Of a stretch of 64,000 bases of DNA, positions 1 to 64,000 are shown in pieces; position 1 is the first letter of the stretch, and the number at the start of each line of letters is the position of its first letter. Origin of the DNA: Ilex aquifolium (lineage: Eukaryota; Streptophyta; Magnoliopsida; Aquifoliales; Aquifoliaceae); assembly GCA_951799425.1 (NCBI GenBank), contig OX637391.1:20198551-20262550 (forward strand). The letters are read 5' to 3'. The notes beneath the pieces are model-generated. The model was not told the DNA's origin, ran no database searches, and worked only from the letters and a program-made list of their open reading frames with translations. The position numbers and the translations under genes are program-made.

Positions 1-1515
1 TGTGTCAAAATTTCAGCTCAATCGGACGGTTAGATCAAAAGTTATACCAATTCTACGAAGACTGGTCCGGAGCAGAAAAACAGTACCGGTACTCAGTACC
101 GGTACGCCGAAGCTACTGGTGTTCGAAGTACCAGTACGGTACAGTACCGGTACTCTGTAGAGTACCGGTACTGTCTTCTGAAAAAGCCCGAAATGCCTCC
201 AAATCACTTCCCACTTGCTTGGGGGTCCCACCAATGCTTCTCCCACTTGCCCCCAACATTTCCTTACACATTTCCATGCCTCCCTGACACAACTTGAAGA
301 CTTTTGAGGCTTGGCATTCAAGGAGGAAGAGAGAGAAATGGGCTGCCATGTGGGTTGCAGGCTAGCCTGTCCAAGGCTTCAACTCAACCTCCTATTGATG
401 GGTGGCCTGCACACAGCTGGGGGGACCACCATGCACGAAATTTGAAGGCTCACACTCCATATACTCAGCATTATTCAGCATTGCAAAGGGGAGTGACTAC
501 CTAAGCTTAGTTTTAGTTCCATGTAGAAGATGATGAATAGTGTAATGTAAGTTTATGTTTTGCATTTTCCTTTCCATTTCAATTGTTGTAAGCTTTAAAC
601 CTCTTGTAATCTTCATTCCTTGCACTTTAATCTTAGTTGTTTCAAGTTTATTCCAAGTTTACTTGAATGTTCTTCATTTCACCATTGTTGCTTCAAGTTT
701 TCTTCATTTCATCTTTTAAAATGGGTATTACATATTTTCCTTCATAGCTTTAGATTTATTGCTTCAAGTTAAGTTTCATGCTTTAAATCTTCATTTCTCT
801 ACAATGTCTTTCATTTACATTATGCTTATCTTTCTTTTATGCATGAGTAACTAGCTTTTAAGTTGGTTAATCCAAGAGAGAATTCCTCTTGGGTGTGCCA
901 CTTCAACTCATTTTCATTCCTCCTCTCAGAGTACGATGGCTCGGTTTGACTGGGTTGGGGTTAGGACATGGTTGTGAGTTCTTGATACACCGTAGGCATT
1001 GTCACGGGGTATGCTTGAATCCTCACCTCCATTTTAGTCCCGAGCTTCCCACGAATCAATCGTACTTCTAGGCTCTATTGGAGGAAGGATTGAGTTGATT
1101 TGGTATTCCCATTGGAATGACCTCTTTGGATTAGCCAACACTTGTTTTTATTTCATTTTCATTAAGAACACTATCACAAACCAAACTCAAAACTCAAAAG
1201 ATTTTACACTTTTCCCTTTTGTTCACCAAAATCACTTTCACACACTTGAACTTTCCTTCCCTGAGGAGACGACCTTGGAATACTTTTCCAAGTAAAACAC
1301 CGACACACAAAAGACTCTTTGCGATTGGGGAGCACTTTTGTTCACACACCCGCATTTCATTTACATTTTCATTCATTCCATCCTCCAATCCGTTGTTGCC
1401 TAATCTCTTGCATCATTCCGAGGGAGAGTGACACTCCCTTAGTCCTATAAGCCATATACACATGTCAAAGGGTGATGTTTAGGGGTAGGAAACAACAACG
1501 TTTTTTCATCAATCA
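1..1515 (+). mobile_element. Partial LTR / leader-like region of an unassigned Ty3-gypsy element
   Basis: No coding region is credible here. The stretch has the composition of a plant gypsy LTR. It holds a palindrome array (83-171), a weak TATA-like catatact near 455, and a T-rich stretch with many ttcattt/cttgtaat words (500-880) that looks like an R/poly(A) region. It also has the phrase ccctgaggagacgaccttgg near 1260, a type of phrase common near the 3' end of Athila-like LTRs. At about 1516 the sequence switches abruptly to gag of copy dA, with no PBS between them, so this is not simply the LTR of dA. Plus orientation is inferred from the order array, TATA-like, T-rich tail. The left end lies outside the window. 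The family is not identified. Confidence 0.5.
83..171. repeat. GTACCGGTAC palindrome array
   Basis: Four perfect 10-bp palindromes gtaccggtac lie at 83-92, 96-105, 144-153 and 162-171, with a one-mismatch copy gtaccagtac at 128-137. Spacing is irregular (13-32 bp). The phrase just upstream (3-50, gtcaaaatttcag) recurs beside another array at 33515-33550. Confidence 0.9.
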
Positions 1516-1516
1516 A

Positions 1517-3421
1517 ACGACATCACTTCATTCGCACAACATGATTCTGAGACTCTCTATGAAGCTTGGGAGCGATTCAAAGACTTACTCCGAAAATGCC
1601 CTCACCATGGTATTCCTAACTGGTTGCAAGTTCAAACGTTTTACAACGTGTTGTTTAGTGCTACCCGAACTAGTATCGACGCAGCTGCAGGAGGGGCATT
1701 GATGAGGAAGAATTTCGATGAAGCCTATGAGTTATTGGAGACGATGGCTGCCAACAATTATCAGTGGCCCTCTACAAGGATCAATCAACCAAAAGTAGCA
1801 GGGATTTATGAAGTTGATGCAATTACTGCATTGGTTGCACAGGTTGCTACGTTGTCAAAGAAGATTGATGCTCTAGCAGTGCAACCTATTCAGAGTGTGG
1901 CAGTTATCTATGAATTATGTGCAGGGAACCATTCGAGCAATCAATGTGCAATTAATCCAGAGTCGGTACAATACATTGGTAACCACAATAGGCAGCAATA
2001 TAGCAATAATTCCAACAATTATAACCCTGGTTGGGGGACTCATCCGAACTTTTCATGGAATAATAATCAAGCCCAAACTTCTGCTCCAAGACAATCATAC
2101 CCACCAGGCTTTCAGAATCAAGCTCCACCACAGCAGGAAAAGAAGTCAAATTTGGAGGAGCTGCTTTCCAGGTATATAGCACAAAGTGAGACAAGGATGA
2201 ATAGTATGGAAGTATCAGTCCGAAACCTGGAAAATCAAATGGGTCAGCTCGCTAATGCCATTAACAACCGACCTCAAGGCACTCTACCTAGTGATACGGA
2301 GATTAATCCCAAGAGGGAAGGTAAGGAGCACTGCAATGCTATTACTTTACGAAGCGGAAAAGAGTTACCTGAGGTTGTTGGTGGAACTCCAAGACAATCA
2401 CATGGAGATGATAGTGGGGGTAAAGAAATAAAAGATAGCAGGAATGTGGACCATAAAAAAAAGGAATGTGATCTAGTGGTAAATTCTGATGAAGGCAAGC
2501 AGAGTCCTATTGTGCCTCCCGTGCCGTTTCCACAACGTTTGCAGAAACAGAAGTGGGATAAACAGTTCTCTAAATTCATGGAAGTGTTTAAGAAGCTCCA
2601 AATAAAAATCCCTTTCGCAGAAGCAGTAGAGAACATGCCTAACTATGTGAAATTTTTGAAGGAAATTCTGTCAAGGAAGAGAAAACTAGGTGATTTTGAG
2701 ACAGTGACACTTACGGAGGAGTGCAGTGCTATTCTTCAAAAGAAGCTACCACCAAAGCTCAAAGATCCGGGTAGCTTCACAATTCCATGCACAATAGGCA
2801 GTCAATTTTTTGGGAAAGCATTGTGTGACTTGGGAGCTAGTATTAACTTGATGCCACTCTCAATTTATCAGAAATTGGGTTTGAAGGAAGCGAAGCCTAC
2901 TAATGTTACATTGCAGCTTGCAGATAGATCACTCACTTATCCAAGGGGGCATAGTTGAGGACGTTCTAGTTAAAGTGGATAAGTTCATTTTTCCAGCTGA
3001 TTTCATAGTCTTAGATTGTGAGGAAGATAGAGAAATACCTATTATTCTTGGGCGACCATTCTTAGCAACGGGGAGAACACTTATCGATGTACAGAAATGT
3101 GAGCTAACGATGCGAGTCCAAGATCAAGAGGTTACATTCAATGTATTTTCAGATATGAAATTTCCAGATGAAGTGGAAGAATGTTTTCGGGTTGATGTGG
3201 TGGAAGATGCAGTGAATGGGATATTCGTAGGAAGCCGTATTTCAAATTCTCTTAAGAACGCCGAGCTATATAAAGAGGAGGTGTTCCCGCATGGAGCGGT
3301 TGAAGTCAAGGAAGCCAATTCAAAAAGAACTTTCAAGGTGAACGTGCAGAGACTGAAGCAATATTGGGGCAGCGACATTGATCATGAAAAGACCTCAATT
3401 ATCCTTGCCGACCTGGGATGA
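1517..3421 (+). pseudogene. gag-protease with integrase C-terminal tail, frameshifted (Athila-type)
   Basis: The frame opens inside the gag capsid region (YEAWERFKDLL), passes a zinc-knuckle-like CX2CX3HX4C (ELCAGNHSSNQC) and a Q/N-rich linker, then reaches the aspartic protease with DLGASINLMP near 2830. An extra G in the run near 2946-2950 shifts the frame. The second frame (2903-3421) carries the rest of the protease ([19 protein letters not shown]) and then joins directly to the last part of an integrase (FPHGAVEVKE, FKVNVQRLKQYW). RT, RNase H and the integrase core are missing, exactly as in copy dB, so the loss is ancestral. The start codon is lost by truncation. Gag would form particles and the protease would process them; neither is likely functional here. 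Confidence 0.85.
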
Positions 3422-4747: not shown

Positions 4748-4755
4748 TTAATTAT

Positions 4756-4773
4756 TCCTCGGTAACGGCGCAA
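4756..4773 (-). other. Inverted, mutated primer-binding site (tRNA-Asp type)
   Basis: Read on the minus strand this is ttgcgccgttaccgagga, close to the tggcgccgttgccgggga primer site of copy dB. It lies next to the inner end of the inverted LTR at 4780. Only about ten more bases beyond it resemble element sequence before copy dA begins. Confidence 0.75.
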
Positions 4774-4779
4774 AAAACT

Positions 4780-6117
4780 TGTTGTCCGAATTTGGTATTG
4801 ACAATTAACGTGCAAGTATACACGATCAACAAGTAATAAAGTGATAAGTAGAGTATCGTTCCCACGGAGAATTATTAATAATAAATTTCAAGTACTAACT
4901 TTATATCAATTCGATTTTATTTAAACAATTGGAATTGAACTATGGAATGAATAATTTAAACTAAATCTAAACTTAATAATCAAAGATTGAATTTAATGGA
5001 TAAGAGAAGTTAAGATTACAACTTCCCCTAATACTTCGTATAAATCTTTCCACTCTCTCTCCAGTTAATTGATCAAATTGAATTGTTAACTGAGACTTCA
5101 AAAGTATTTATCAAACCTCTTCCGATAGTAAGATAAGCATATCTCTCCCAATTAAATTTCTATATTCCTATGCAAAATAAGTTGGAATAGATTCATTAAG
5201 TTCAAACTCTCATACACGTTACACACGACATATAGGTATATTCCTATCCTATACACAAACCCAGCAATTCAATCCGAAGAAGAATTAACCAGACGCATGT
5301 CATCATATTCAGATCTAAACCTAGAATTCATCTCCCAATTTCATCTAGGTTATCAAATTAATTGATGGCCAAACAATTATAAATTAAACACAAAATATGA
5401 CAAACAACTCATATATGATTAACAAGAACTATAAACGAGAGTAGATAAATTTAACTAGACATTAGGTTCCGTTGCAATCTTAATAAAAATTTAGTTCATA
5501 ATGTAATTGAAAAACATCCTTCTCAAATTAAACAACATCTAGAAAATCAAGAAGAAAAAGTAAGGGAAAAGAATGAAAACTTAGTTGCAATCTTCAATCC
5601 TTCTCTAGCCGTCAAGTCCGATTTTCTTCGTGTCGGTTTCTTCGATTCTTGCCTTCAATTTTCTATCAATACTTGGACTTCTTCTCTCTATTTTCAGCCC
5701 CCAAAGTCATTATATTTATATTCTCCTCAAACCCTAGCACATAGGAGACATTAGAGTCCAATTTCGGGTCAAAAAGGAGTCATAATTCGCGTCCAACTTC
5801 AGTAGGGACGCGCTGGGGCGCTGGGACAGCGCTATATGGGCAGTAAGTGGGCGCTGGGGCGCTGAAACAGCGCTGGAACAGCGCTGGTCTGTTTTACCCT
5901 TCAGCTCCCTTTGTTGCCTAGCCTTCAAAAATCCAACATTTAAGCTCCAAATTGACCTTGTTTCCTTCCAAATGATCTTGTTTGATTCCAAATGATGATT
6001 CCTATCAAATAACATTAAAACACACAAAAAAAATAAAAAGGAACATAAAATAATTGAAAACTTGCAAATTCCTCAAGCCGAAAGTACTCAATTCGTAGGT
6101 ATAAAACCGACTCATCA
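4780..6117 (-). mobile_element. Inverted LTR of the dA/dB Athila-type family
   Basis: The reverse complement matches the LTRs of copy dB along its whole length. It starts tgatgagtcggttttatacc (minus strand, at 6117) and ends ggacaaca (at 4780). A TATA-like aatataaatataat lies at about 5708-5721 on the minus strand, and the GCGCTG array (5809-5888) lies upstream of it. Only the inner side keeps a PBS. There is no partner LTR in the same orientation, so this is one end of a lost element, or a rearrangement product fused to copy dA. Confidence 0.88.
5809..5888 (-). repeat. GCGCTG / CAGCGC palindrome array in the inverted LTR
   Basis: About 80 bp hold repeated gcgctg and cagcgc words, including cagcgctg palindromes near 5826, 5868 and 5879. 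On the minus strand the array lies about 90 bp upstream of the TATA-like box. Word order differs from the dB LTRs although the rest of the LTR aligns well, so the array evolves by rearrangement faster than its flanks. Confidence 0.85.
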
Positions 6118-6585
6118 CCAAACATGATAAAAGAATTGCAAAATGAACTAAAAGAATTCGTGTGCCAAAGTTAGGGTTTACAAGGTCTTCAATTTGTATT
6201 TATAACTTCCTAGGAAATAGATTGATTTTCTTCAGAATTCTAAGTCTGGCATCAGCGGATCCTTGACACGCGTCCGGACGCACGTCCCTCAACCGTTCGG
6301 ACGCAACTTCCAGTGACTTTATTCTTCTACTGATCGCCTTTCTGCCACTCGCGTCCGGACGCGCAATCTTCTTCCATCCGGACGCACTTTCCAGTGTGCT
6401 TTCCCTTGAGCTATGCTTCATCTTCCCATAATTTATCTCCAAAATTATGCTTTTGTCCTGCAAATTAACACAAATCAACATTTGATAGCATAACATCCGA
6501 ACTTGGATAAACTTTTATATTTATCACACTTTTATAATTAAATAATCAATCTTTCCTAGTAATAAATGTGATTATTAGACCTTAA
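6118..6585 (-). mobile_element. LTR fragment with GCGTCCGGACGC palindromes
   Basis: A perfect 12-bp palindrome gcgtccggacgc lies at 6270-6281, and the 14-bp cgcgtccggacgcg at 6350-6363. Each is followed 23 bp later (centre to centre) by a degenerate copy (ttcgga near 6298, tccgga near 6379). A minus-strand TATA box, gttataaatac (6196-6206), lies downstream of the array when read on the minus strand. No PBS or partner LTR is visible. The fragment ends where the Tat-A LTR begins, near 6586. Minus orientation is inferred from the TATA placement. Confidence 0.55.
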
Positions 6586-7567
6586 TCAATGAGCAATAAA
6601 CAATCAATCAATGGCAATCAAGGAATTAAAACTGTAAATAGAGAATCAACACAGGGATTTATAGTGGTTCGGTCTCGGATGACCTACTCCACTTTCGGGA
6701 ATGGCAGCGGTGGCCTGGTGTTCTTTATTGATGAATAAGATTCGTCGGAGGGATGTTCTCCGGGAGTATTACAGTGCTTTGGGAGAGAGGGAAAGAGAGA
6801 GAGCAATGTGTGTAGTAAGTGTGTGGGATCTTGGAGGCGTGCCCTTATTCCTGAGAGGGCTTACATTATATAGCTTGGATAAGGCGGTGACGTGAGGAAG
6901 AGGTCTTCCACTATTTTGGTAAGTGCAATCTCAGTAGGAATGGACTTCTTTGGCAAGCACAGTTAAGGTAGGAGTGGATCTCCGTATCCCGTCATTCTCT
7001 CCCTCGTGCTCCTATTCAGTCGGAGAAGAATCTTGATTGGATTGGACTTGATGTTGAGCTTGGACTTTGAGTTGGAATGGGCTGAACTTCGTATCGGTGT
7101 ACCAAGGCAAGAGCAATATAGAGAAGTAGGCGCCCAAGGGACCAGGTCCAAGTGATCAAGTTCAAGTGATCAGGTCCAAGTGATCAGGTCCAAGTGACCT
7201 GCCCAGCGGTGCCCAAGTGCAGCCATGCATGGTGCCCATGCCCTTTGGGCGTTTGCCTTGCTTTGGTGTTGACCTCTTGGTGTTTTCTTGGATCATCATA
7301 GGAGGCGGAGAATGAGGAAAAAAGGGAGCTCGCCTGGGCGGCGCCTAATGGATGGCGTCTAGTGGGCGGCGCCCAAGTGATGGGTGACCTCCTTGTTGGC
7401 GCCCCTTGGTCTCCCTTGGCCATTTGGCTTCCTTCTAGACTCCTTTTGGATGGGTTGACCCGACTGAATGGGTCTTAGCGACTTGGGCTTCTTCTTGAGT
7501 TTTTAATATTTGGGTCTTTCTTGATTTATTTTTATCGGGCTTGGCCCAGTCAAATTTGGGCTCGTCA
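6586..7567 (-). mobile_element. 3' LTR of Tat-A (U5 end truncated)
   Basis: It aligns with 16545-17509 and ends (minus-strand start) tgacgagcccaaatttg at 7567. The minus-strand TATA box gctatataatg lies at 6865-6875. Upstream of it on the minus strand (7098-7396) are many ggcgcc-type words such as ggcggcgcccaag. It also has extra copies of a 14-bp repeat (aggtccaagtgatc, 7141-7197) compared with the other LTR, which is evidence of local slippage in this region. Confidence 0.88.
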
Positions 7568-18985: not shown

Positions 18986-19513
18986 AAGGGGTGAATTTCG
19001 TAATTTGATAATGAGAAATTAAATGAAGTGGGAATGAAATTTTGTGGGGGTGAGAAAACCCCACCCTTTAAGTTCATGTTATTTCAATTTTCCATTGTAT
19101 AACCTTGTATTTAGGAAAATACTATTTTGACTCCAAAAGTTAACATTATTTTTTGATTTCATCGATCACAAATATTGAATATGTAATGTGTTCAAATAAA
19201 TACTGAGATTCATAGTTAAATCAATTATCGTGATTGATGGAGTCAGCATTAGGTATAACGGTTACACCATATCAGCAATATTGATGTGATGTAATTATTC
19301 AATAAAAAAATTACAAAATAGATAAAATAGAGCCCATTTTCTATCATTGATGTGATTATATATTGAGCAATGTTAATGAACTTAAAAATTGATTTGATTA
19401 ATCACTGTCATTGATTTAATTGTGGGCTCTAATATTTATTGAGACTCATTATCTATTCAATAATTGTGATTGATCAAGTTAGCAAAACAAGTCAATTTTT
19501 TAAGTATAAGAAA

Positions 19514-20287
19514 TGATGGTGTATTTCTACTGAAAACGAACTATGGGTCTAGATATGGATATGCGTGAGACTAAATGTGGTGTCTGAGCTACAAGGCTCG
19601 TGCCAAACAATACCAGTTGATGCTTAGGGGAATAGAGGAAAGGGAGATAACACAATAGAATTACAGTGGTTCACTGGCCTGTGAGCTCGGCTAGTCCACT
19701 CTGCAATGGAGTCTCTTGCTCCTCTTTTCTTATTGATTGCATTGAGCATGTTACAGCGTAATGAGGAGGGAAATTAGGGTTCATCGTGGCTCTATCGCCT
19801 ATATCCCTCTTGATGGAAGCTTACCCCCCTTTTATAGCCTCTTGCTTATCTCTAATCCGATTTTACTTCCTACAATGAAGGGATCTTCCCCCATCTCTTC
19901 CTCCAATCCCGGAGTTACCTAAACTCTATATGGCTGGCTTTAACGGTCTATATCCCGAGATCTTTGCCTTCTACCATGGGATCCTCCTTAATATTTGGAG
20001 AGGATCTTGGTTGGTTAAGGGTTTTATGCCTTGGTTCCAGCTTGGCTTCTACTTCGGAGGTGTCCGCTATCATCCTGCTGTCTCCTCATCTTTTCCCCTA
20101 TTATCTTGCTTCGGGGAGCTCCAATACTGGCTGGACGAGCTCTGACTATGGCTTGGACGAGCTATGCTTGTCTTATCCGATCTCACGAGCTAAGCTCTGG
20201 TTGGTAGAGCTCTGCATACCTTACCTGAGCTCCCGAGCTGAGCTCATTTCCCGAGCTCATGTTTGGGGTTTATTTTAGGTATCATCA
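19514..20287 (-). mobile_element. 3' LTR of Tat-B
   Basis: On the minus strand it starts tgatgatacc at 20287 and ends caccatca at 19514. The minus-strand TATA box ggctataaaa is at 19830-19839. Upstream of it, 20116-20262 holds six gagctc palindromes (20116, 20137, 20207, 20227, 20240, 20253) and several half-copies. Confidence 0.93.
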
Positions 20288-29253: not shown

Positions 29254-31381
29254 TCAAGAACTAGATGAGAAGGCTTTTAACCTCTCTGCTAACTTGGACC
29301 CAATATAAACGAGGTGTTCTGGCTCCTTGTCAAGTTGAATTGGTTCCAGTTCTTCTGATGACAATGGTCTTGTTTCCAGCTCATCCCTCATGTCGAGTTC
29401 ATCCAATTGGATGTTCTCAACCTCTTTCATCTTTACAGACGCCATGTAGCATTCTCTTGCTACACGCTGATCTCCCCGGACAGCTCCGATTCCGTTTGCT
29501 GTAGGAAATTTAACGACCAAGTGATAGGCGGATGGGATTGCCCTCATAGAATTGAGGGAAGGCCTCCCCAGCAGGATATTGTATGCAGAAGGTGCATCCA
29601 ACACTAGGAATTTTACGGTCGTGGTGGCTTGGCAAGGTGGGTCACCTAGGGTGAGCACGAGTTGGATTGAGCCCAGAGGGAGCACCATTTCTCCTGAGAA
29701 TCCTAGCAAGTGAGTGTTTACAGGTTCGAGTTTTTCCCTTCCTATGTCCATCTTGTCGAAGGCAGGTGCAAAAATGATGGCTACCGAGCTCCCGTTATCA
29801 ATCAGAACTCGGTGAACGGTCCTGTTAGCTACCACGACTCTTACCACCAATGGATCATCATGGGGGTATTGGCATCCCTCCAAATCAGAATCTGAAAAAG
29901 TGATAGCTGTGTCTAAGCGTGGTGCTTTGGATACAGTATGCACTTCGAGAGCTTCTTTGACTCTGATTCGTCGGAGGTGTGTTTTCCTGGCTGAGCTGGA
30001 CTCTCTGCCTCCCGCAAATCCTCCAGATATCACTCTGATCTCACCTAGAGGCTGCTGATATGGCGCAGGTGCCTGCTGTTGGGGTGGCAGCGGTGGAAGA
30101 GCTCGATTCTGGTTGTCATGAGCCACAAAGCGACGCAACTGTCCTCGTTGAATCAAGAACTCGATCTCCTTCTTTAATTGAATACAGTCATCAGTATGAT
30201 GACCATGATCCCTGTGGTAGTCACAATACTTTGTGGGGTCTCTCTTGGCTGGATCAGCCTTCATCCGAGGTGGCCACCTTAGGAACTTCTCGTTTTGGAC
30301 CTCATACAGAACTTGAGATACAACGGCGGTGAGTGGGGTGAATCGCTGAGGTCCGTATCTAGGCTGTAGCTCAGGCTGCATGGGGCCCAAGCGGTCTCTA
30401 ACATTTCCTCTTCTCTTCGGGGAGCGATCTCTACCCCTCCTTGGAGACCTTTCTCGCCCCTTTTCTTTCCTGGGACTTCGGTCCCTTTTCTTCTCTTCTT
30501 TTTCCTTCTCCTTTCGTGAGGATGCACTTCCCACCTTGGAAAGGAGTGCTTCTTCACCGTTTATGTACTTTTCTGCCTTGGATAACACCTCAACCATGCT
30601 TGCTTGAGGGTTCTTTGATATAGAGAACATGAGATCCTTTGACTGGACTCCCAATCCGGCAATGAAAGCAGTAATGGCAAACTTTTCGTCAGGGATATCT
30701 ACCTTTAGAGATTCTGAATTGAACCTCTGAACGTAAGATCGCAGGTTCTCATCAGGCCTTTGTTTTATATTTAACAGATAATAGCTCGGCTTCCTATAGA
30801 TCCGAGCTCCGATGAAGTGAGACACAAAGGAAATGGAAAGTTCTTTGAAAGAAGAGATCGAAGTTTGGGGGAGCTTATTGAACCATGCTAAGGCTGACCC
30901 CTTCAGGGTGATGGCGAAGGCCCTACATCGCACAGGATTCTGGTACTCGTGCAACTCCATCTGGTTTTTGTAGGTGTTGAGGTGATCCATAGGGTCTTTT
31001 GTCCCATCGAAAACCTCTATCTGAGGCACTCTGAACTTCGGAGTAAGGGGGAAATGTAGTACCCCGGAAGTAAATGGGGATTCAGTTTGTTGCACCAAGG
31101 CATCCATTGTTACTGGGGTTTTGACCTTCACTGCCTCTCTCATGTGGCTGAGCTCTTGTTGGATGTCCTTGAAGCGGTGTTCCCAATATTGCTTCATTCT
31201 CTCCTGTTGGAAAGGAAGGAAATCATTCCTTTCCAGCCCTTCGTTCCGGCTTTGTGCTTCTTCGTTGATTCCCCTCCTAGGCGGCTGATGGGGTGCTTGA
31301 TTGCTTTCTCCTCCCTCGTTTGCTTCCCTGAGGGGGTCAAGGCACTGCCGTTCCCTAGGAGGAAGATTATTCGGGCCTTGC
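29254..31381 (-). pseudogene. gag (main part) and protease of Tat-B
   Basis: This is an open minus-strand frame of about 700 codons. The gag domain carries FRVPQIEVFDGTKDPMDHLN, LKGSALAWFNKLPQTSISSF and FVSHFIGA. An Arg/Lys/Glu/Ser-rich stretch (SPRKEKGRERSPRRGRDRSP) and a knuckle-like YCDYHRDHGHHTDDC follow. The protease reads LIDNGSSVAIIFAPAFD: the usual Asp-Ser-Gly is Asp-Asn-Gly here, which may disable it. The frame ends at 29254. Its N-terminus (33910-34168) is cut off by the solo LTR inserted at 31382-33909. Confidence 0.87.
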
Positions 31382-33909
31382 TGTAACGCCCCAAAACACA
31401 CCCTGGACGGCATTACATACTAAAACCATTTACAATCATGAGAGCAACTACACAACCTAATATCCAAAAGAATTTACTTCATCATTTAAGCACATACAAT
31501 AACATCCAAAAGAATATGCCCAACAATGGCATTTACATCCCAATAATTTAACTATTATAGCGCAGCGGAAAGTAGCAAAATTAAACTAGACTTTACAGTG
31601 TTCAAAAGAATATTCTAGTCTAGTACAAAAGAGAGGGTCGCTCTAAGCGTCCACCTCGAGATCCACGCTCCTGTCGATCGGAGTCTCCCAATGTGCGGGC
31701 TCCTAGACTCCCAAATTCTCCTCAAGAGTATAATCTGAAAAATGTTCAACTGTAGGGGGTGAGCACGAAGCTCTGTAGAAAATTTCTCCCAAACCCAACA
31801 AGGTTTAAAAAAAACATATAAAATGGGTCGGTCTCGTTTCACAAATATAATATAGAGCTTTTGAAGGAAAACATGGACAATTTATCAGATCTCAAGTTTA
31901 CGCATCAAGAATAATTCATGAGTGAGTGGAACCAATATACAATTAATAATCGATTTCCAAAACATAAACCGTATCTGGTGCAATGAACAATACTCATATA
32001 TAATTTATAATCCATCTCCACCATAAACTATTTCCCACAAGTTCTTGGGGCATCCCATACTACCCCAAAACTCTTGTCGAAACCGTTTCTGGTAGAATGA
32101 ACAATAACCCCCAAGAGATACTATAACAATCCCAGATATTCTAGTTCATCCTCAAGGCCATGTATGTTGATCGTTTCTCCTGAATCTTCTCAACGATTAT
32201 ACCTAGTCCACCCATAATAATCACAAGCACATTTGGAAAGGGGCGTATACCATACCCATGGCATTGCCGAATCCCTCCCCAGGAAAGGTATACCATCCCT
32301 AGTTCGAACTCCAGGCGTACGATAGCGGTTGTGTTGACAAACACCAACCCACTACGAATGCAAGAAACCATCTCCCCCCACTGGGTTCGACTGACATTTA
32401 CACTCTACGGCATATCTCGTAAGTAATTCAAGTCCATCACAAGCAACCATACAAAAGAGGAAACCAAGAATATCTCTATTCACAAACAATCCCAAGAAAT
32501 TATCAAATTCCCCAATTTCCCAAGCCATGTACCATAGCATAATTTTAAGAAAATGAACAAGAGATCATTAGCAACATCATTTTATTGTACAAGATAAAAC
32601 ACTAAAGTTTGGTAACCAAGACAAAAGGAATTTAAGAGGAAAAATCCATTTTCTTCAAAACTCGGGTTGGATTGTGAAAAAGAATGGTTCCATGGTTACC
32701 CAACCACCAAAATGTTTGAAACATGTCCTTTATTGCCAAAAATATCAAGAATCATGTACTACATATCATATATATGAGAAGACAAGTGAGAGACATACAT
32801 AAATATACAACCCTAGCCTCAATGTATGAGAAATGAGAGAAATACCCCTACCTCTTAGTTGTAGCTTCAATCTAAGACCCAAGCTTCAAAATCTTCCTAT
32901 TCTCCTTCCTTTTTCCGCTTAATTTCGTCCTCCTAGGGTTTCAAGAAATTTGGGTGTGAGTAATTGAAGAATAGAAGAAAAGAAATGGGTGGGGAAGTGA
33001 GATTTTTGAGAAATCTAGGGTTTGATCTTCACAAATGATGTAAATCTCTCTCTCTTGGATGTGTTTTTCTCTTCCTCTCTTCTCCTCTCAAGCTATCTAG
33101 GGTTTGGAGTGGTGTAATGAAGGCTAAGGAGGTGACAAAATGTATTTATAGTGGAGGAAAAATCGAGGGTTCGCGAACAGAAAATTCGGATTTTTACAGT
33201 GGCTACCGGTAGCTGCTTTTGGCTACCGGTAGCTCGGACACACGGGACCCTCGGCTACCGGTTGGCTACCGGTAGCTGATTCTTACTGGACCATCGGCTA
33301 CCGGTTGGCTACCGGTAGCTGATTCTTACTGGACCATTGGCTACCGGTAGCTGAATTTGGCTACCGGTAGCTTATTTTGGCTACCGGTAGTCACTACCCA
33401 GATTTTTCTACTTCCACTTCCAATGCCATTTTTGACCCATTTAGAGGTCGAATTGGAAAATTTCCATTAGATACACTTTTGTAGCTCTAGATGTCTACTA
33501 TCTACTGTCAAAATTTCAGGTCATTGGGAATTAAGAATAAAAAGTTATGATCGAAATAGTAGACCGTGTCCAAAATCCTTTATACCCAAATTTTCTCTAA
33601 AATGTGTTTTAACTCCAAAATACTTCCTAACTTCCAATACCCCCATATTACCACTCCCAATGTTTTTCTACCTTCCGGATTCAATGAAATCATTATTTTT
33701 ACCTACAAACTTTTAGAAACTTGTCTAATCACCCTTTCCAAGTTTAAACATCTTCGACACGTAACTTCTCCAATCAAATTGTCTCCATAGCATTTATTCC
33801 TACGGTTTATTCTTATATCACTACATATATCTACATCTTTTCAAATATTATTTACTATATATATATATATATCTCTATAAATATATAAAAGAAAATTCGG
33901 GGTGTTACA
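31382..33909 (-). mobile_element. Solo LTR, 2.5 kb, inserted in Tat-B gag
   Basis: Ends are tgtaacgcccc (31382) and ggggtgttaca (33909), flanked by a perfect 5-bp duplication cttgc (31377-31381 and 33910-33914). No internal gene, PBS or polypurine tract is present, so it is the product of LTR-LTR recombination. Minus orientation is supported by a TATA box actataaataca near 33141-33152, with the palindrome array upstream of it on that strand. The TGTAACACCCC start on the minus strand and the long LTR suggest a chromovirus of Del/Tekay type; that is a tentative family call. Confidence 0.9.
33202..33391 (-). repeat. GCTACCGGTAGC palindrome array in the solo LTR
   Basis: Perfect 12-bp copies start at 33202, 33222, 33265, 33308, 33340 and 33360, a near-perfect one at 33380, and half-copies gctaccggt at 33254 and 33298. 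Start-to-start distances are 20, 32, 11, 33, 10, 32, 20 and 20, all near multiples of a DNA turn. On the minus strand the array ends about 50 bp upstream of the TATA box. Confidence 0.93.
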
Positions 33910-44021: not shown

Positions 44022-47000
44022 TGATTAGCACTTAAAGTTAGCATGTTACTAAGCCATTTTAAGACTAATTGTACTATGATGGAGTTTAAGTGATGTCATT
44101 TCAGGCCCTAAACTGAACAAGGACTAAAGAACAACAAGTACCACACTTGGATGCAACACCAGCACATTAGAGCCCAAAATTGGAAAAGCTTGGAGTACAG
44201 CCAGAACGTTCAAACGCCAACTCATGTTCGAACGTCCACATTGCACTGTAGCAGACTCAACTGCTAAGAGAAGGCGTGTTGCAGTTAGGAAAGAAGACTG
44301 AAGCTCTGAGGCACTTGAGTGTCACGTTCGAACGCCAACTCACGTTCGAACGTGCACTTGAGTTGATTGAAGACCAGACTACTGGATAGAGTTGGAACTG
44401 AACTACACAGAAGACCAACAGATCACTCCAGTGAAAGGGTCAGAACACATCTGGCGTTCGAACGCCCTTAGTGCAACAACAGAAGAAACGTTCCAATGGC
44501 AATCAACGTTCGAATGACCTTAGTGCAAAAACAGAAACAACGTTCAAACGCCAACTAATGTTCGAACGTTCTCCACAGACTGGCAGGAGAGTGGTTGGCT
44601 TTTCACTTGGACTTGGGCGGCATACATTATTCCTTTACCTCCTCTTGCCTATAAATACTCCCCTTGTTGGAGAGCTATGGGAGCCAAGTAGAAGGGTTTA
44701 TGGAGGCTTAGACTCCCACTCACATTGTAGATTTAAGCTTATGTTTTCCTTGTATGAAGTCTTTATTTTAGAGATTAGTTTGAATTTAGTCCAACATCTC
44801 CTTGTTTGTTATAAGAGTAGTTTTATGTTTATGCTTTCATTTACATACATAGAAGGGAGTTAGTTCATCCTTTGGTTGAGGAAGCAACCCTCCATTTCTT
44901 GGTTGAGGAAGCCACCCTCCAAATGTGACTAGCCTTCTCCTACTTTTATTGTTCATGTATTTCACTTCCATTGTTTGAGCTTCTTTTTTTCTTAGAAGAG
45001 TGAAACTCTTCCACTTTTCTAGAGCTTTACCAAAGCCGTGAAGGGTGGAACGTGATTTGATTAGTACTTAAAGTTGACATATTATTATGACATTTTAAGA
45101 CTAATTGTACTTTAATGGAGTTTAAGTGATGTCATTTCAGGCCCTAAACGGAACAAGGACCCAAGAACAACAAGTACCACACTTGGATGCAGCACCAGCA
45201 CATTAGGGCCAAAATTGGAAAAGCTTGGAGCACAGCCAGAACGTTCGAACGCCAAATCACGTTCGAACGTCCACATTGCACTGTAGCAGACTCAACTGCT
45301 GAAGAGAAGGCGTGTTGCAGTTAGGAAAGAAGACTGGAGCTCTGAAGTACTTGAGTGTCATGTTCGAACGCCAACTCACGTTCGAACGTGCACTTGAGTT
45401 GATGGAAGACCAGACCACTGCAGAGAGTTGGAACTGAACTTCACAGAAGACCAACAGATCACTCGAGTGAAAGGGGTCAGAGCAAATCTGGCATTCGAAC
45501 GCCCTCAGTGCAAAAACAGAAGAAACGTTCGAACGACAGTCAACGTTCGAACGCCCTTAGGGCAAAAACAGAAAGAACGTTCGAACGCCAACTCATGTTC
45601 GAACGTTATCCACAGACTGGCAGCAGAGTTGTTGATTGTTCACTTGGACTTGGGCGGCAAACACTATTCTTTCACCCCCCCTTGTCTCCTCCTCTTGCCT
45701 ATCAATACTCCCCTTGTTGGAGAGCTAGGGGAGCCAAGTAGGAAGTAGGAAAGTTGATGGAGGCTTAGACTCCCACTCTCATTGTAGATTTAGCTCATTT
45801 CCCTTGTATGAAGTCTTTATTTTAGAGATTAGTTTGGCTTTAGTCCAACATCTCTTGCTTGTTATAACAGTAGTTTTATGTTTATGCTTTCATTTTTCAT
45901 GCATAGAAGAGAGATAGCTCACCTTTTGGTTGAGGAAGCAACCCTCCAATTCTTGGTTGAGGAAGCCACCCTCCAAATGTGACTAGCTTTCTTCTACTTT
46001 TATTGTTCATACATTTCACTTCCATTGCTTGCGCTTCTTTCTTTCTTAGAAGAGTGAAACTCTTCCATTTTTCTAGAGCTTTACCAAAGCCGTGAAGGGT
46101 GGAATGTGATTCACCCATTCTTTGTTAAAGATTGGCTACACATTTGTTGTTACTTTATCTTATAAGTTCTCTACTTGGAGGGATGAGCATCACTCACTTT
46201 TCTAGCTTTACCCAAGCCATGAAGAGTGAGTAGTTTCTCATTCACTCTTTAGTAAGAGGAGAAGGGCATGTATAAGTTATCCAGGAATCATATTTGTGCA
46301 ATGTTTCTATGCTTACCGCTTATTTCCTCTTGTTATTGGACGACTGATTGCATCTAGCAAAGCTATGGTACTTTGTGTAATTGTGGGTTCTTTCTATGAC
46401 ACGGATGACTCTTGCATAGAAATACTCATCAGTTCAAGGCAAGTACCCCGGCTAGATCCTCATGACTACCCCTCAATCTTCCCCCTTATTGTACTTCATT
46501 TAAAGAATGGAATATTAATATCATAATTGGATGTCTTGTAGAAACACTTGCTTGTTTGTAGACGGGTTAAGTCTCGGCACAGGCAATTCTTGTAAACTTC
46601 TAGAAAGACGTCGGAATCATGTTCTTAATTCTCACAATCCATCTTTATCTTCCGATTAACTTGCTGTTGACACGGGATTTAATTGAGTTATCAAGCACAA
46701 TTATGACAAACCGGATAACTAGCTACATGTCCAGATCCTTGCACTAAAGAGTGACCTTTTTTTTATTAGCACCTATTTTGTTAAGAAAATCTTCCTGGAA
46801 AGAATCTTATATTCTGTCCAGAAAAACTCATATCTCACAGCAAATCTCAAAGGTTACAATCAATAGGTCTCTACCACTGCTCACCTCAGAAATATCAACA
46901 AAAGTTCCCTGTGGATTCGACTCCGGACTCAAACCGGATTATTACTACAGCTTGACCGCCTGCACTTGAGTGTACACATTTCGGATCAAGCCATCATGAT

Positions 47001-47890: not shown

Positions 47891-47896
47891 AGTTTT

Positions 47897-47914
47897 TGGC
47901 GCGGTTGCCGGGGA
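47897..47914 (+). other. Primer-binding site of Athila-C (tRNA-Asp type)
   Basis: tggcgcggttgccgggga lies six bases inside the LTR end. It differs by one base from the dB site, which is complementary to the 3' end of plant tRNA-Asp. Confidence 0.85.
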
Positions 47915-56116: not shown

Positions 56117-56122
56117 AGTTTT

Positions 56123-56140: not shown

Positions 56141-56246
56141 ATTATTCTAGTAATTATTTCAATAATAATTTCAATAAGTTTGATCTTAGTTTAAACTTAT
56201 TTGATTTTCTGTTTTAATTTTTTTTGCAAGCATTCTTGAATTTTGT

Positions 56247-58163: not shown

Positions 58164-58190
58164 ACAAGGGGCATAGTTGAGGACGTTCTA

Positions 58191-60193: not shown

Positions 60194-60347
60194 GTGAGTA
60201 GAGATGGAGCGTAAAACGCACTCACTCATAAACACATGTTGAGAACGAGATGGAGCGTAAAACGCACTCGTTCAAAGAGAAGGCGAGATGGAGCGTAAAA
60301 CGCACTCACTCAATAGGAAGTGAGATGGAGCATAAAATGCACTCACC
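60194..60347 (+). repeat. Four-unit hairpin array of copy dB
   Basis: Units start at 60201, 60247, 60285 and 60322 and correspond one to one with copy dA. Unit 2 keeps the full gaacgag/ctcgttc outer stem. Unit 4 keeps gcat-aaa-atgc. The outer stem of unit 3 has one C-A mismatch compared with dA. Confidence 0.88.
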
Positions 60348-60750
60348 GAATGAATAAAAAAAGAGAAAAAGAGAGAGAGAAAAAAAAATATTTGTACCTT
60401 CTAGTTATATGTTTTGCCTTAACAAGCGGAGATTGATGTGAAACGTAAGTTCATAGAGTTCATATTGAGTATCTCCTATGGAGTGCTTGACTACGTAAAT
60501 TTATCTGGGTGATGGCTAGTTTAAACAGTTAGAATGTGCACATGTATTTAAAGGGTCATGAGCGGAGGTAAAATTAAGGAGTATGTTGAATTGTTAGACT
60601 TTGCACCGTTTTGAAGTTTCCCGTGAATTAGTATTTATAGTAACTTTTGGGGCTATTATTCAAATTCATATTGATCCATTGTTTGAGTAGTTGGTTGATT
60701 AATTTTTATAGTTTTTGTTCTTAGTATTTTGCTTGAGGACAAGCAAACAT

Positions 60751-60767
60751 TTAAGTTTGGGGGTATT
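60751..60767 (+). other. Polypurine tract of copy dB
   Basis: ttaagtttgggggtatt lies directly before the 3' LTR start tgatgag. An internal look-alike (aagtttgggggtg) lies about 1.06 kb upstream. Confidence 0.85.
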
Positions 60768-62116
60768 TGATGAGTGGGTTTTATACCTACGAATTGAGTA
60801 CTTTCGGCTTGAGGAATTTGCAAGTTTTCAATTATTTTATGTTCCTTTTTATTTGTTTTGTGTGTTTTGATGTTATTTTGTAGGGATGATCATTTAAAAG
60901 GAAACAAGATGATTTGGAAGGAAACAAGGTCAATTTGGAGCCAAAATGTTGGATTTTTTAAGGCTGAACAACAAGGGAATTTTAGGCTTGAAAGGGGACC
61001 CGCGCCCCTGCGCCAAAACCAGCACCCCTGCGCTGGAAAGGACAGTAACTCAGCGCCCCTGCGCTGATTTTGGCGCAGCTGCGCTTGTAGGGGAAGTTGG
61101 ACGCAAATTAGGACTCGTTTTTGACCCGAAATTGGACTCTAATGCCTCTTATGTGCTAGGGTTTGAGGGGAATATAAAAAGAATGATTTTGGGGGCTGAA
61201 AATATAGAGAAGAATACCAAGAATTGATAGAGAATTGAAGGCAAGAATCGAAGAAACCGACACGAAGAAAATCGGACTTGAAGGCTAGAGAGGAGTTGAA
61301 GATTACAACTAAGTTTTCATTCGTTTCTCTTACTTTTACTTCTTGATTTTTTGAGATGTTGTTTAATTTGAGAAGGATGTTTTTTAATTACATTATGAAC
61401 TAAATTTTTATTAAGATTACAACGGAACCTAATGTCTAGTTAAATTGATGTACTCTCGTTTCTAGTTTTTGTTGATCTTATATGAGTTGTTTGTCATATT
61501 TTGTGTTTAATATATAATTGTTTGGCCAACAATTAATTTGATAACTTAAATGAAATTGGAAGATGAATTCTAGGTTTAGATCTGAATATGATGACATGCG
61601 TCTGGTTAATTCTTCTTAAGATTGAATTGCTGGGTTTGTGTATATGATAGGAATATACCTATACGCCGTGTGTAACTTTTATGAGAGTTTGAACTTAATG
61701 AATCTATTCCAACTTATTTTGCATAGGAATATAGTAATTTAATTGGGAGAGAGATGCTTATCTAACTATCGGAAGAGGTTTGATAAATAATTTTGAAGTC
61801 TCAGTTAACAACTTATTTTGATCAATTAACTGGAAACAGAGTGGAAAGATTTATACGCAGCATTAGGGGAAGTTGTAATCTTAACTTCTTCTATCCGTTA
61901 AATTCAATCTTTGATTATTAAATTTAGGTTTAGTCTTAAATTAGTAAATTCATAGTTTAATTCTCATTGTTTAAATAAAACTGAATTGATATAAAGTTAG
62001 TACTTGAAAGTTATTAGCAATAATTCTCCGTGGGAACGATACTCTACTTATCACTTTATTACTTGTTGATCGTGTATACTTGCACGTAAATTGTCAATAC
62101 CAAATCTAGGACAACA
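60768..62116 (+). mobile_element. 3' LTR of copy dB
   Basis: 1349 bp, starting tgatgagtgggtttta and ending ctaggacaaca, followed by the target duplication gtgtt. Palindrome array at 61001-61086 with small differences from the 5' LTR (agcacccctgcgctgg for agcgcccctgcgctgg). TATA box near 61171. Confidence 0.95.
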
Positions 62117-62177
62117 GTGTTTGGCCTTCTTTGATTGTGTATAGTGTAGTAGAGAAAAAATTTAATTTTTGGTTCAA

Positions 62178-62477
62178 CGTTTGAACGCCAGGTGACGTTC
62201 GAACGTCATCTGCTTACAGTACTCAGCCTCTGATGAAGCTTCTGATGGAACTTAAAAAGTAGTAGGAGCTCAATCCGTTCGAACGCCAATAGACCGTTCG
62301 AACGAGATTAACGTTCGAACGCCAATAGAACGTTCGAACGAAGAGAACCTACAGTACTTTGGCCTCTAACAGAACTCAAAAGTACTGAGAGCTCACCACG
62401 TTCGAACGCCAAACCTCGTTCGAACGATCTGCTTAAAATCCTTCTACACACGTTCAAACGTCACCAACGTTCGAACG
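62178..62477 (+). repeat. Internal CGTTCGAACG palindrome array of Athila-C
   Basis: Eight perfect 10-bp copies start at 62196, 62276, 62295, 62312, 62331, 62399, 62417 and 62468, with near-copies at 62178 and 62451. Neighbouring copies are 17-19 bp apart, as in the Athila-C LTR, and are often joined by ccaa. The array ends 14 bp before a TATA box. Confidence 0.93.
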
Positions 62478-62485
62478 TCACACCT

Positions 62486-62502: not shown

Positions 62503-62715
62503 GTTCGTCTTCTTCATTTCAAAATCACCCAAAACCCCCAAAAACCCGAAAAACCCTTGAAGACTCTTCATTACCCAGCACCTAAAACGCTTACCATTCT
62601 CCATTTTCACCAAAAATCAAACATCCCAAGACCATTCCCATATCAAAAAACCTCCATTTTTACAAAGGAATTCAAGCTTTCAATACCTTCACAAACTCAA
62701 AACCCAAAAATCACA

Positions 62716-63711
62716 ATGCCTAGAGTTAAACTACCTGTCAGGCGAAACCTGATCAATTAGGAGCCTAATTTTGTAGAAGAGGTGATTGAAGAGAGGGAAG
62801 GGAGACCAGTGGTGAAAAGATTCGATCGAACACGATTCCCTAGTACTCTCAAGGCAGAAAGGTATGAAAACTTCTTCCAAAATCATGCAGTAGTATGTGA
62901 AAGAGATATTGTGATTACTGATTTTGCGGAATTGGGAATATTGGCGGAGATGGAGAGGAGGAATTGGGTGTGGTTTTTGCGAAATGGGGGAGATGCCGTT
63001 GCTTACTTGGTGCGGGAGTTTTACTCCAACACCGAGATCATCAACGGCGCAATCCGAACACACGTGAGGGGAGCCCACATTGATGTGAGTGAAGAGTATA
63101 TTAAGGAAATAAGGCAAGAAGTGCCTCGGGTACAAAACCCGACATACCCTCCAAGGAAGAATGAACCGTTGAATAGGGTAGGGAGAGAGTTGATAGGGAT
63201 TACTAATTTTTCATGGGATAGGCGGAGGTTTTTAAAACAGGGGGAGCTCACTGATAAATACAAGATGCTTAACTTAATTACGATGTCTAATCTCGCTCCC
63301 ATAGGACGAATGAGTGAGATTTTACCCGACATGGCCCGACTTTTGTATGTCATTGGCAAAGGACATGCCATCGACCTCCCCTCTCTCATCCTGAATGAAA
63401 TGAAGAAGGGGTGTGATGTAAAAAGGAGTGCACTCCCTTTTGCAACTTTGGTGACTGAAATATGCACGGAAAATGGGATCAAGGTGAGGCCGGAGATGGA
63501 AATCCAAAAGCCGATGGGGCCACTGAACAAGGCATCCTTCCGGAGAAGCCAAAGTCATAGTGGCGGCCCAGCGGCAAGACAAGAAGAACCCCCTGCCCAC
63601 GGAGTGGATGAGGTACAAGAGGAGCTTGATGAGATGGAGGATTATAGAGATGGAGAGAGAGAGAGAGAGACCACCCATAGGAGGCAGGTCCCAGCAGTCA
63701 GAGATCACTGA
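62716..63711 (+). pseudogene. Second extra ORF of Athila-C (putative plant transposon protein family), one early stop
   Basis: ATG at 62716 (MPRVKLPVRRNLIN), then an in-frame TAG at 62758-62760, then open to 63711 (about 331 codons in all). The region WFLRNGGDAVAYLVREFYSN, IRTHVRGAHIDVSEEYI and later LLYVIGKGHAIDLPSLIL resembles the putative plant transposon protein family (Pfam PF20167), often found in 3' regions of Athila-type elements and sometimes called env-like. No signal peptide or membrane span is visible. The C-terminus is acidic, then Arg-rich (YRDGERERETTHRRQ) over a (ga)n run. It is preceded by its own palindrome array and TATA box. Only one lesion separates it from an open gene, apart from the long distance to pol caused by copy dB. 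Confidence 0.7.
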
Positions 63712-64000
63712 GAGACATCATGATTGGCATCGAGGCCAACCAAGACAGGATTCTTCGACAGCAGGAGGAGATCCTTGGACTTCTGAGAGGTGGAGCTGGA
63801 AGACCTAGAGGAGAGTGAGAGAGAGAGAGATCACTATCCCTGTTCTTGTTCTTATGTTTTTTATGTTTGTTTAAAGTACTTCTTTTTATGAATTTCTTCT
63901 TTGATAGTTGTAAGTTTTTGTGTGATTGTGAATGAATCGAACCGTTGAAATTAAAAAATGATATTTTGAGAAATGAATGGTTCCATTTATCACTTTGTTT
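63712..64000 (+). other. 3' flank of the second extra ORF, window end
   Basis: A (ga)n tract is followed by T-rich sequence with tttatgttt and gtaagttttt words that looks like a 3' UTR. No LTR start or polypurine tract appears before the window ends. Confidence 0.5.

What the first reader, a model, noticed from the sequence alone, without database searches (positions are those of the whole stretch)
1..64000. Every LTR family carries its own palindrome, arrayed upstream of TATA
Seven unrelated-looking LTRs share one layout: a short palindromic word repeated 4-10 times in U3, then a TATA box. The words are GTACCGGTAC (83-171), GCGCTG/CAGCGC (5809-5888, 55001-55086, 61001-61086), GCGTCCGGACGC (6270-6382), GGCGCC (7098-7396), GAGCTC (20116-20262), GCTACCGGTAGC (33202-33391) and CGTTCGAACG (44207-44568, 45242-45605). 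Flanking sequence is not conserved between families; only the architecture is. Five of the seven have CG at the centre. This suggests a fast-evolving module, such as homodimer binding sites, a silencing or escape signal, or foldback RNA in the 3' LTR. I know of no general description of it.
Basis: partly seen in the sequence, partly recalled or inferred. Interest (0 to 1): 0.92.

Follow-up and report, generated by a model that had tools for sequence, protein, structure and literature searches.

The report
Swappable palindrome cassettes in retrotransposon promoters
In this plant genome several kinds of retrotransposon carry, just before their promoter, a row of identical short palindromes that looks like a docking array for a two-part DNA-binding protein; the palindrome differs between related elements, yet its place is kept, and one such array is shared by two unrelated kinds of element.

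Summary
Partly right. The arrays are real, but not general (2 of 10 other tRNA-Met-type stretches), and flanks are not always unrelated. The window's 33.2-33.4 kb array lies in a chromovirus-type solo LTR. Of 60 relatives sampled by one conserved flank, 59 carry an array at the same place, spelled with one of five 10-letter palindromes, never two of them in one LTR. In 37 of the 38 with TATAAATA or TCTAAATA, a palindrome (at most one mismatch) sits 56-59 bp before it, whatever the word. Two Athila-like elements carry a second array of their own word before an extra ORF; for the second I predicted the LTR word and found it. A 131-bp array is homologous between a Ty1/copia LTR and an Athila-like LTR, with unrelated flanks. 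Best reading: promoter-proximal binding sites for a dimeric factor, inherited by clade and at least once exchanged as a cassette. Family-specific palindromes before TATA and before an env ORF are known from Sireviruses (Bousios 2010). New here: Gypsy lineages, fixed register, one word per element, sharing across superfamilies. The binding protein is unknown.

The parts
31380..33909 (-). Solo LTR of a chromovirus-type Gypsy element; starts TGTAACACCCC; lower end approximate. By my reading it interrupts the gag of a Tat-like element (target-site duplication not checked)
   Evidence: homology to L013, L021, L001; L013 carries a tRNA-Met PBS and zinc knuckle, protease, SH3_Tf2-1 and Chromo matches (Chromo 22.1 bits, below its 25.1 cut-off)
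33202..33391 (-). Array of GCTACCGGTAGC units in that LTR
33143..33150 (-). TATAAATA, 57 bp from the centre of the nearest palindrome
   Evidence: read; spacing rule
6117..6588 (-). Upstream piece of the 5' LTR of an Athila-like element that continues in L005 (PBS at L005 6587); split by other insertions
   Evidence: 96.8% over 467 bp to L118; L118 to L005 97.2% over 609 bp
6270..6382 (-). GCGTCCGGACGC array, 4 units (2 with one mismatch) spaced 23-58-23; TATAAATA 71 bp further at about 6204
44022..45057 (+). First copy of the duplicated U3-bearing half of the 5' LTR of Athila-like element D; TATAAATA at 44650
44207..44568 (+). CGTTCGAACG array, 8 units (3 exact, 5 with one mismatch), close pairs 18 bp apart
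45058..46111 (+). Second copy of the same LTR half, 89.6% identical; array at 45242-45605; its TATA is mutated
47895..47914 (+). Primer binding site of element D (one mismatch to the recalled Athila-type string)
62182..62472 (+). Second, internal array of element D (first to last unit centre): 10 CGTTCGAACG units, 2 with one mismatch; last centre 18 bp before TATAAA at about 62491
62761..63711 (+). ORF with PF20167 (Transposase_32) in env position behind the internal array
   Evidence: same order PBS-gag-RT-INT-array-PF20167 ORF-LTR in L005, L117, L118
54751..56126 (+). 5' LTR of an Athila-like element in which only gag was recognised, with GCGCTG/CAGCGC half-words at 55001-55086; TATAAA 109 bp after the last one
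60749..62125 (+). 3' LTR of the same element (97.4%), half-words at 61001-61086; the element splits element D
19511..20287 (-). LTR of a Tat-like element with GAGCTC x6 at 20116-20262; TATAAA about 280 bp downstream
   Evidence: GAGCTC x5 also in relative L010
34228..35004 (-). Other LTR of the same Tat-like element, also with GAGCTC x6
83..171 (.). GTACCGGTAC array (4 exact, 1 degenerate) in a repeat whose LTR nature and orientation were not settled; no TATA-like site near
7098..7396 (-). GGCGCC x4 in the LTR of a Tat-like element; weak

Best explanation
Each array is a promoter-proximal set of binding sites for a DNA-binding protein that binds as a symmetric dimer and helps start transcription from the TATA box just downstream. 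Shown: the arrays, one word per LTR, the constant distance to TATA within a lineage, the same word at both promoters of an Athila-like element, spacing of neighbouring sites that goes with the word, and a cassette common to a Copia and a Gypsy LTR. Inferred: that a protein reads the sites, that it binds as a dimer, that it activates. The word is inherited by clade; a new word comes as a whole array, at least once through transfer of a ready-made cassette between unrelated elements (inferred from shared sequence with unrelated flanks), and persists where it keeps its distance to the core promoter. A host transcription factor family is the likelier reader, because the same words serve unrelated elements; a factor encoded by the elements is the main variant.
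For: (1) 59 of 60 sampled chromovirus LTRs have at least 2 copies of one palindromic 8-mer at positions 86-350, against 15 of 6000 shuffles and 12 of 740 random genome pieces. (2) Of the 59, none holds two of the four core 8-mers or two of the five 10-mers built on them (other, single palindromes do occur); words follow the flank tree with 5 changes, 0 of 200 shuffles as low (near-copies favour this). (3) Centre of the TATA-nearest exact palindrome to TATAAATA (34) or TCTAAATA (4): 56-59 bp in 33 of 38; 4 of the other 5 have a palindrome with one CpG-type mismatch at -57/-58; 57-59 in 20 of 20 near copies, up to 2 mismatches allowed. Spacers of eight representatives, compared between word classes, are 22-53% identical, 62% for CTACCGGTAG against CTTCCGGAAG, while upstream flanks are 83-89% identical to the window copy. 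(4) Athila-like pair: internal arrays with different words both 18 bp before TATA, ahead of homologous ORFs. (5) One word per element: predicted, found; five further sets and element D in the 59 clusters of the listing have the spacing LTR, internal array, LTR with one word (inferred from distances). (6) Close-pair spacing goes with the word: CGTTCGAACG 17-19 bp in Athila-like LTRs, an Athila-like internal array and chromovirus LTRs; GCGTCCGGACGC 23 bp in Copia and Athila-like arrays (the Copia and Athila-like LTR arrays are homologous, so not independent). (7) Cassette: 131 bp, score 121 against null maximum 34, flanks at null; the Copia side holds RVT_2, E 2.7e-52. (8) In 232 units of the GCTACCGGTAGC set the core ACCGGT has 3 changes in all, outer positions up to 72; in 135 units of the GTACCGGTAC set 20 against up to 65 (units were picked by likeness to the word, which favours the core).
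Against: No binding, expression, methylation or small-RNA data were available. GCGTCCGGACGC pairs in chromovirus LTRs are 20-22 bp apart, not 23. Of the 59 LTRs, 21 have no TATAAATA/TCTAAATA; 18 of these have a TTTAAAA-type site at a looser 43-56 bp and 3 have none. The two Athila-like LTRs differ in distance to TATA (86 and 71 bp). Phasing by the helical repeat is not general: mean cosine 0.86 for CTACCGGTAG, 0.88 and 0.67 on three spacings each for CGTCCGGACG and CTTCCGGAAG, but 0.18 for GTACCGGTAC and -0.37 for CGTTCGAACG, and spacings are not independent. Tandem duplication plus descent from few masters could explain uniform words within an LTR. The Copia-Gypsy cassette is one clear case. 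For GTTCGAAC (element D internal against chromovirus L081) the masked score was reached by 2.6% of shuffles, by 0 of 300; the D LTR itself gave no significant signal. Of 13 cross-lineage pairs, 5 were at 0.003 or below, but those looked at rest on short stretches of 15-31 bp.
Confidence: 0.63

Rival explanations
1. Element-matched reader: the elements encode the binding protein (activator or anti-silencing factor, working like VANC of VANDAL transposons), and word and protein co-evolve; the PF20167 ORF behind the internal array is the natural candidate.
For: One word at both promoters of an element and different words in relatives of the same lineage; arrays that grow by tandem duplication and change together resemble VANC targets as described in PMC5735166 (passages).
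Against: Chromovirus LTRs and the Copia element use the same words, and no PF20167 match was seen in the three of their ORFs that were scanned (two of L013; one of L003). The fold prediction of the PF20167 protein failed (mean pLDDT 37.7), so nothing shows that it binds DNA.
Confidence: 0.17
2. Hairpin or small-RNA module: the array acts in RNA as a source or target of small RNAs and so as a silencing signal or decoy, as proposed for maize Sireviruses.
For: Maize Sirevirus palindrome regions are small-RNA hotspots (PMC5311732 and PMC10760457, passages; the 2016 Genome Research paper is not held). In the GTACCGGTAC set 16 of 135 units are another palindrome, changed in both halves, which symmetric selection of any kind, RNA included, would give.
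Against: The palindromes here have no loop letters, so a single unit makes a poor hairpin (inference; no folding was run). Fixed DNA distance to TATA is not expected of an RNA signal. Units changed in one half only are commoner than symmetric changes: 78 against 9 of 232, and 30 against 16 of 135.
Confidence: 0.11
3. Neutral tandem duplication: palindromes are by-products of slippage and concerted evolution, without a reader.
For: Units lie in 43- and 52-bp tandem duplications; nonpalindromic repeats also stand upstream of TATA in L107 and L112.
Against: Does not explain why the repeated unit is palindromic in 59 of 60, why the distance to TATA is kept across words, or why word and spacing recur in unrelated elements.
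Confidence: 0.06
4. RNA kin recognition: self-complementary words in the U3 of genomic RNA promote dimerisation and packaging of like with like.
For: One self-complementary word per element; U3 is at the 3' end of the genomic RNA (general knowledge).
Against: Position is tied to TATA, a DNA feature; the internal array sits before its own TATA; unrelated elements share words.
Confidence: 0.03

Closest known systems
Sirevirus repeated motifs (Bousios et al. 2010, PMC2829016; section 9 read in full, other passages)
   Same: Family-specific palindromes in U3 upstream of TATA, 3-14 copies per 3' LTR; further copies before the ENV gene; 12 of 13 with a CGG-CCG signature; near-identical motifs in elements of low sequence homology
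   Different: There confined to Sireviruses (Copia) and reported absent from classic Copia elements; many motifs have a central spacer; no register to TATA across words and no shared cassette between superfamilies appear in the parts I read
Plastic 5' CpG island of Del (Tekay) LTRs (Cruz et al. 2014, PMC4029996; passages)
   Same: Same superfamily and, by recalled lineage name, the same lineage; 5' part of the LTR; variable in length and sequence
   Different: 'palindrom' does not occur in its held text, and it reports no LTR CpG island in eudicot Del elements; here a eudicot host has palindromic arrays (I ran no CpG-island call)
VANC target motif arrays of VANDAL transposons (Hosaka et al. 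2017, PMC5735166; passages)
   Same: Short element-specific motif arrays in non-coding DNA, spread by tandem duplication, changing together between relatives
   Different: Nonpalindromic motifs in a DNA transposon with a known element-encoded reader; no reader is known here
Maize structured regions with CACCGGACNNNGTCCGGTG (PMC10760457, passages)
   Different: Approach is RNA structure and small RNA; no cassette boundaries or TATA register in the passages seen

Membership tests
Sirevirus repeated-motif module | Palindromic, element-specific repeated motif in U3 | tested here: met
Sirevirus repeated-motif module | Located upstream of a TATA box | tested here: met
   37 of 38 with a palindrome at 56-59 bp; 21 of 59 lack that TATA; not met for 83-171, distant for GAGCTC and GGCGCC
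Sirevirus repeated-motif module | Additional copies between pol and the ENV-position ORF | tested here: met
   Athila-like elements D and L005/L117; not examined in the chromovirus or Copia elements
Sirevirus repeated-motif module | Host element is a Sirevirus (Ty1/copia) | tested here: not met
   chromovirus-type and Athila-like Gypsy elements; the Copia element L003 was not assigned to a lineage
Sirevirus repeated-motif module | CGG-CCG core | tested here: inconclusive
   four of the five chromovirus words have CCGG at the centre; GTTCGAAC, GAGCTC and AAGCTT do not
Sirevirus repeated-motif module | Array delimits a CpG island | not tested
   no CpG-island call was run
VANC-type anti-silencing target | Element-encoded protein binds the motif and removes methylation | not testable with these tools
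   no binding or methylation data; fold prediction failed
VANC-type anti-silencing target | Motif arrays in non-coding regions, changing together between related copies | tested here: met
Ty3/gypsy chromovirus (33 kb LTR lineage) | Integrase with chromodomain, tRNA-Met PBS | tested here: met
   L013: PF24626 E 1.2e-22, PF00385 E 1.5e-4 (22.1 bits, under the 25.1 cut-off), PBS exact
Ty3/gypsy, Athila-like (D and L005 elements) | gag-PR-RT-RH-INT order and extra ORF before the 3' LTR | tested here: met
   (the protease of L005 and the integrase piece of D score under their cut-offs); the lineage name rests on a recalled PBS

The most novel reading that the evidence does not exclude
Retrotransposons in this genome run on swappable cis 'passwords': a small vocabulary of palindromic words, each with its own spacing rule and its own reader, set in a fixed register to the core promoter, matched across all promoters of one element, and traded as about 130-bp cassettes between Copia and Gypsy elements, so that unrelated elements change expression niche or escape silencing by capturing each other's array; in Athila-like elements the PF20167 protein made from the internal promoter would be the matching reader.
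Probability: 0.15. Interest if true: 0.92.

Novelty: new variant of a known kind. Interest (0 to 1): 0.72.

Why it matters
U3 regions are held to be too variable to compare. Here a register rule (distance to TATA kept, letters replaced) and cassette sharing make U3 evolution readable: one can list words, place switches on the flank tree, and look for the factor that reads each word. It gives a concrete test of whether LTR promoters evolve by point change or by capture of ready-made enhancers, across the Copia-Gypsy divide, and it extends a module described for Sireviruses to Gypsy lineages of a eudicot.

Tried and rejected
Second motif CACTGGA/TCCAGTG beside the arrays: no more lineages than in shuffles, later seen to lie partly inside the Copia/Athila-like cassette. 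Protected CpG as a sign of low methylation: decay at array centres (0 of 98; 16 of 134) against flank CpG (2 of 68; 5 of 31) shows no clear difference, with few flank sites. Helical phasing as a general rule: rejected, only some words. w6270 as Copia-like: rejected; it is an Athila-like LTR. Cassette sharing for GTACCGGTAC between the 83-171 repeat and chromovirus LTRs: at null; two of four pairs were at 0.003, the one looked at resting on a 15-bp stretch in the other orientation. Fold of the PF20167 protein: unusable. Relatives of that protein in the protein database: one hit at E 1e-8 or better. Literature on plant factors binding CCGG palindromes: one search, nothing usable in the listing. 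A genome count of CCTTCCGGAAGG, one of GCTACCGGTAGC, the Athila- and Tat-type PBS counts and a PF20167 search of the genome did not complete.

The 80 became 69 by dropping any place less than 9 kb after the one before, and 60 were drawn with a fixed seed. L071, without an exact core word, was left out of the 59-row tree and tallies; it has a one-mismatch GTACCAGTAC. The sample holds only copies with an exact 22-bp flank in the first 29 Mb of one contig. The 20 near copies are half of the 40 best matches. The tRNA-Met sample took 10 of the 100 places listed, one per PBS variant, picked by me to avoid the commonest, chromovirus-like variants; even so L109, L110 and L111 end like chromovirus LTRs, and 700 bp does not reach U3 in long LTRs, so the 8 misses are not all clean. 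L114 and L115 are one family.

Full report
SETTING. The window is C1:20198551-20262550 of an 800-Mb genome in 103 contigs. An ORF at 35102-36706 is 90% identical to a glycosyltransferase of Ilex paraguariensis, the best hit, so the host is probably a holly or near relative (inference), a eudicot. The window is largely nested LTR elements: paired or related LTRs at 6588-7567/16550-17509, 19511-20287/34228-35004, 54751-56126/60749-62125 and a duplicated LTR at 44022-47886. Lineage names (Tekay/Del, Athila, Tat) are recalled, from primer binding sites plus the domain hits cited.

OBSERVATION. Within 300 bp the window has 3 palindromic 8-mers with 3 or more copies and 6 palindromic 6-mers with 4 or more, against 0.005 and 0.1 in shuffles. 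Three words are hugely over-represented in the genome against the reversed word: 3271 to 3, 5954 to 0, 8311 to 0. In 20 random 10-kb stretches of C1, arrays were listed in 7 (L009, L010, L011, L013, L017, L021, L025): two chromovirus LTRs with other words than the window's (L013, L021), one Tat-like relative with GAGCTC (L010), one satellite-like 55-bp array (L011), and three not assigned to LTRs. 'Every LTR family' is not borne out: of 10 stretches of 700 bp upstream of other tRNA-Met PBS variants only L114 and L115 (one family, AAGCTT) have a palindromic array; L107 and L112 have nonpalindromic repeats there. The caveat is that at least three of the ten (L109-L111) end like chromovirus LTRs and that 700 bp does not reach U3 in long LTRs. 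An Athila-like LTR end in L005 (cut by an insertion), the sequence before a Tat-like PBS at 38 kb, and direct-repeat pairs in L008, L018 and L026 (LTR nature unproven) also showed no array of 3 or more.

ONE LTR, FIVE WORDS. The 33.2-33.4 kb array lies in a solo LTR (minus strand) whose flanks align to L013 (89%), L021 (88 and 82%) and L001/L002 (83%), with another palindrome in the same place in each. A 22-bp piece of the flank occurs 3158 times in the genome, reversed control 0. Of 60 sampled copies 59 carry at least two copies of one palindromic 8-mer, against 15 of 6000 shuffles and 12 of 740 random pieces. By 10-mer the words are GTACCGGTAC 31, CTACCGGTAG 17, CGTCCGGACG 6, CGTTCGAACG 3, CTTCCGGAAG 2; no LTR holds two of these, or two of the four core 8-mers, though other single palindromes occur. 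On a tree of the flanks the five words need 5 changes (minimum 4; 0 of 200 shuffles as low). So the word is a clade trait that is replaced as a whole.

REGISTER. In the 38 of 59 with TATAAATA (34) or TCTAAATA (4), the centre of the nearest exact word lies 56-59 bp upstream in 33; four of the other five (L061, L080, L094, L077) have a palindrome with one CpG-type mismatch at -57/-58; L102 is the exception at 67. The 20 near copies fetched from the 40 matches all give 57-59. Spacers of eight representatives, aligned on TATA, are 22-53% identical between word classes, except 62% between CTACCGGTAG and CTTCCGGAAG. The 21 without that TATA are looser: 18 have a TTTAAAA-type site at 43-56 bp, 3 none. 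Other lineages keep other distances: Copia L003 37, Athila-like LTRs 71 and 86, the gag-only Athila-like LTRs 92-109.

TWO PROMOTERS, ONE WORD. Element D has CGTTCGAACG in its LTR (44.2k, 45.2k) and again at 62182-62472, 18 bp before a TATAAA and ahead of a PF20167 ORF in env position; the element at 54751-62125 is nested between. A neighbour left of the window (L005, L117) has the order PBS, gag, RT, INT, array, TATAAATA, PF20167 ORF, but its internal array is GCGTCCGGACGC, also 18 bp before TATA; the two ORFs are homologous (score 438, null maximum 53). I wrote down the prediction that its LTR would carry GCGTCCGGACGC, fetched the 3' LTR and found four units at 23-58-23 and no CGTTCGAACG. 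The window's 6270-6382 array belongs to the 5' LTR of the same element (96.8%). In the 100 places listed (59 clusters), five further sets have the spacing cluster, about 8.5 kb, cluster, about 3.5 kb, cluster with the same word, plus element D with its insertion; that these are LTR, internal array and LTR is inferred from the distances.

CASSETTE. L003 is a Ty1/copia element (RVT_2 E 2.7e-52). 131 bp of the Athila-like LTR, from 10 bp before the first palindrome to 5 bp after the last, align to 130 bp of the Copia LTR (score 121, null maximum 34), while sequence on either side scores at null. With palindromes masked the window copy still matches (52 against null maximum 24); the masked scores were 41 and 46, without shuffles. 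The layout 23-57-23, as far as its exact units are listed, recurs at both LTRs of L003's element and of one further copy (positions, PBS). So an array was passed between superfamilies; direction and route are unknown. A second, weaker case is CGTTCGAACG: layout 17-19-68-18 in element D's internal array and 18-18-68-17 in chromovirus LTR L081; masked similarity reached by 2.6% of shuffles and 0 of 300. Copia L003 against chromovirus arrays of GCGTCCGGACGC shows no significant spacer similarity (0.88 and 0.087), so there the word is shared without a visible shared cassette. L005's internal array against chromovirus L048 scored above all 300 shuffles, on a 31-bp stretch.

MECHANISM. Zero-spacer palindromes, a core that changes less than the outer letters, pair spacing that goes with the word and a fixed distance to TATA fit sites for a dimeric DNA-binding protein near the core promoter. 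The sharing of words among unrelated elements favours a host factor; one word at both promoters of an element would also suit a factor of the element's own. An RNA hairpin role is not excluded but does not predict the TATA register.

KNOWN WORK. Bousios 2010 (PMC2829016, section 9 in full) reports 13 Sirevirus palindromic motifs, clustered in the LTR upstream of TATA and, in elements with an ENV gene, before ENV, and calls them Sirevirus-specific. Cruz 2014 (PMC4029996, passages) reports a plastic CpG island in the 5' part of Del LTRs, absent in eudicots. Two maize papers (PMC5311732, PMC10760457, passages) cite the 2016 Sirevirus palindrome paper, which is not held. Searches for palindromes with Gypsy, chromovirus or Athila LTRs, upstream of TATA, and for exchange of regulatory sequence listed, by title and start of abstract, no description of these arrays in Gypsy elements or of a cassette shared by Copia and Gypsy; I read only parts of the papers named here, and most subscription papers are not in that library.

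CHANGES AFTER CHECKING.

Noticed in passing
C1:28.18-28.26 Mb (L013 lies in it): 17 flank places in a row about 5.1 kb apart on one strand: a tandem array of a chromovirus LTR with a shortened internal region; neighbouring units are 99.94% identical in L013.
   Followed up: partly
window 1516-6115: Internal sequence of the gag-only Athila-like family on + is followed directly by its LTR in inverted orientation.
   Followed up: no
window 44022-47886: The LTR of element D is duplicated in an unusual way: the U3 half twice in tandem, then the U5 half twice.
   Followed up: no
C1:26.239-26.254 Mb: A tandem run of tRNA-Met primer binding sites about 1.4-3.0 kb apart.
   Followed up: no
L107 and L112: Nonpalindromic short repeats stand upstream of TATA in two other LTR families.
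   Followed up: no
window 1-79, L011 6902-7020, chromovirus LTRs: A phrase like ATAACTTTT...CTGAAATTTTGACA, by eye, lies beside the arrays in both repeat kinds but in opposite orientation.
   Followed up: no
window 25637-26049: 55-bp tandem array holding both AAGCTT and GAGCTC palindromes; a similar TAAGCTTA array is in L011.
   Followed up: no
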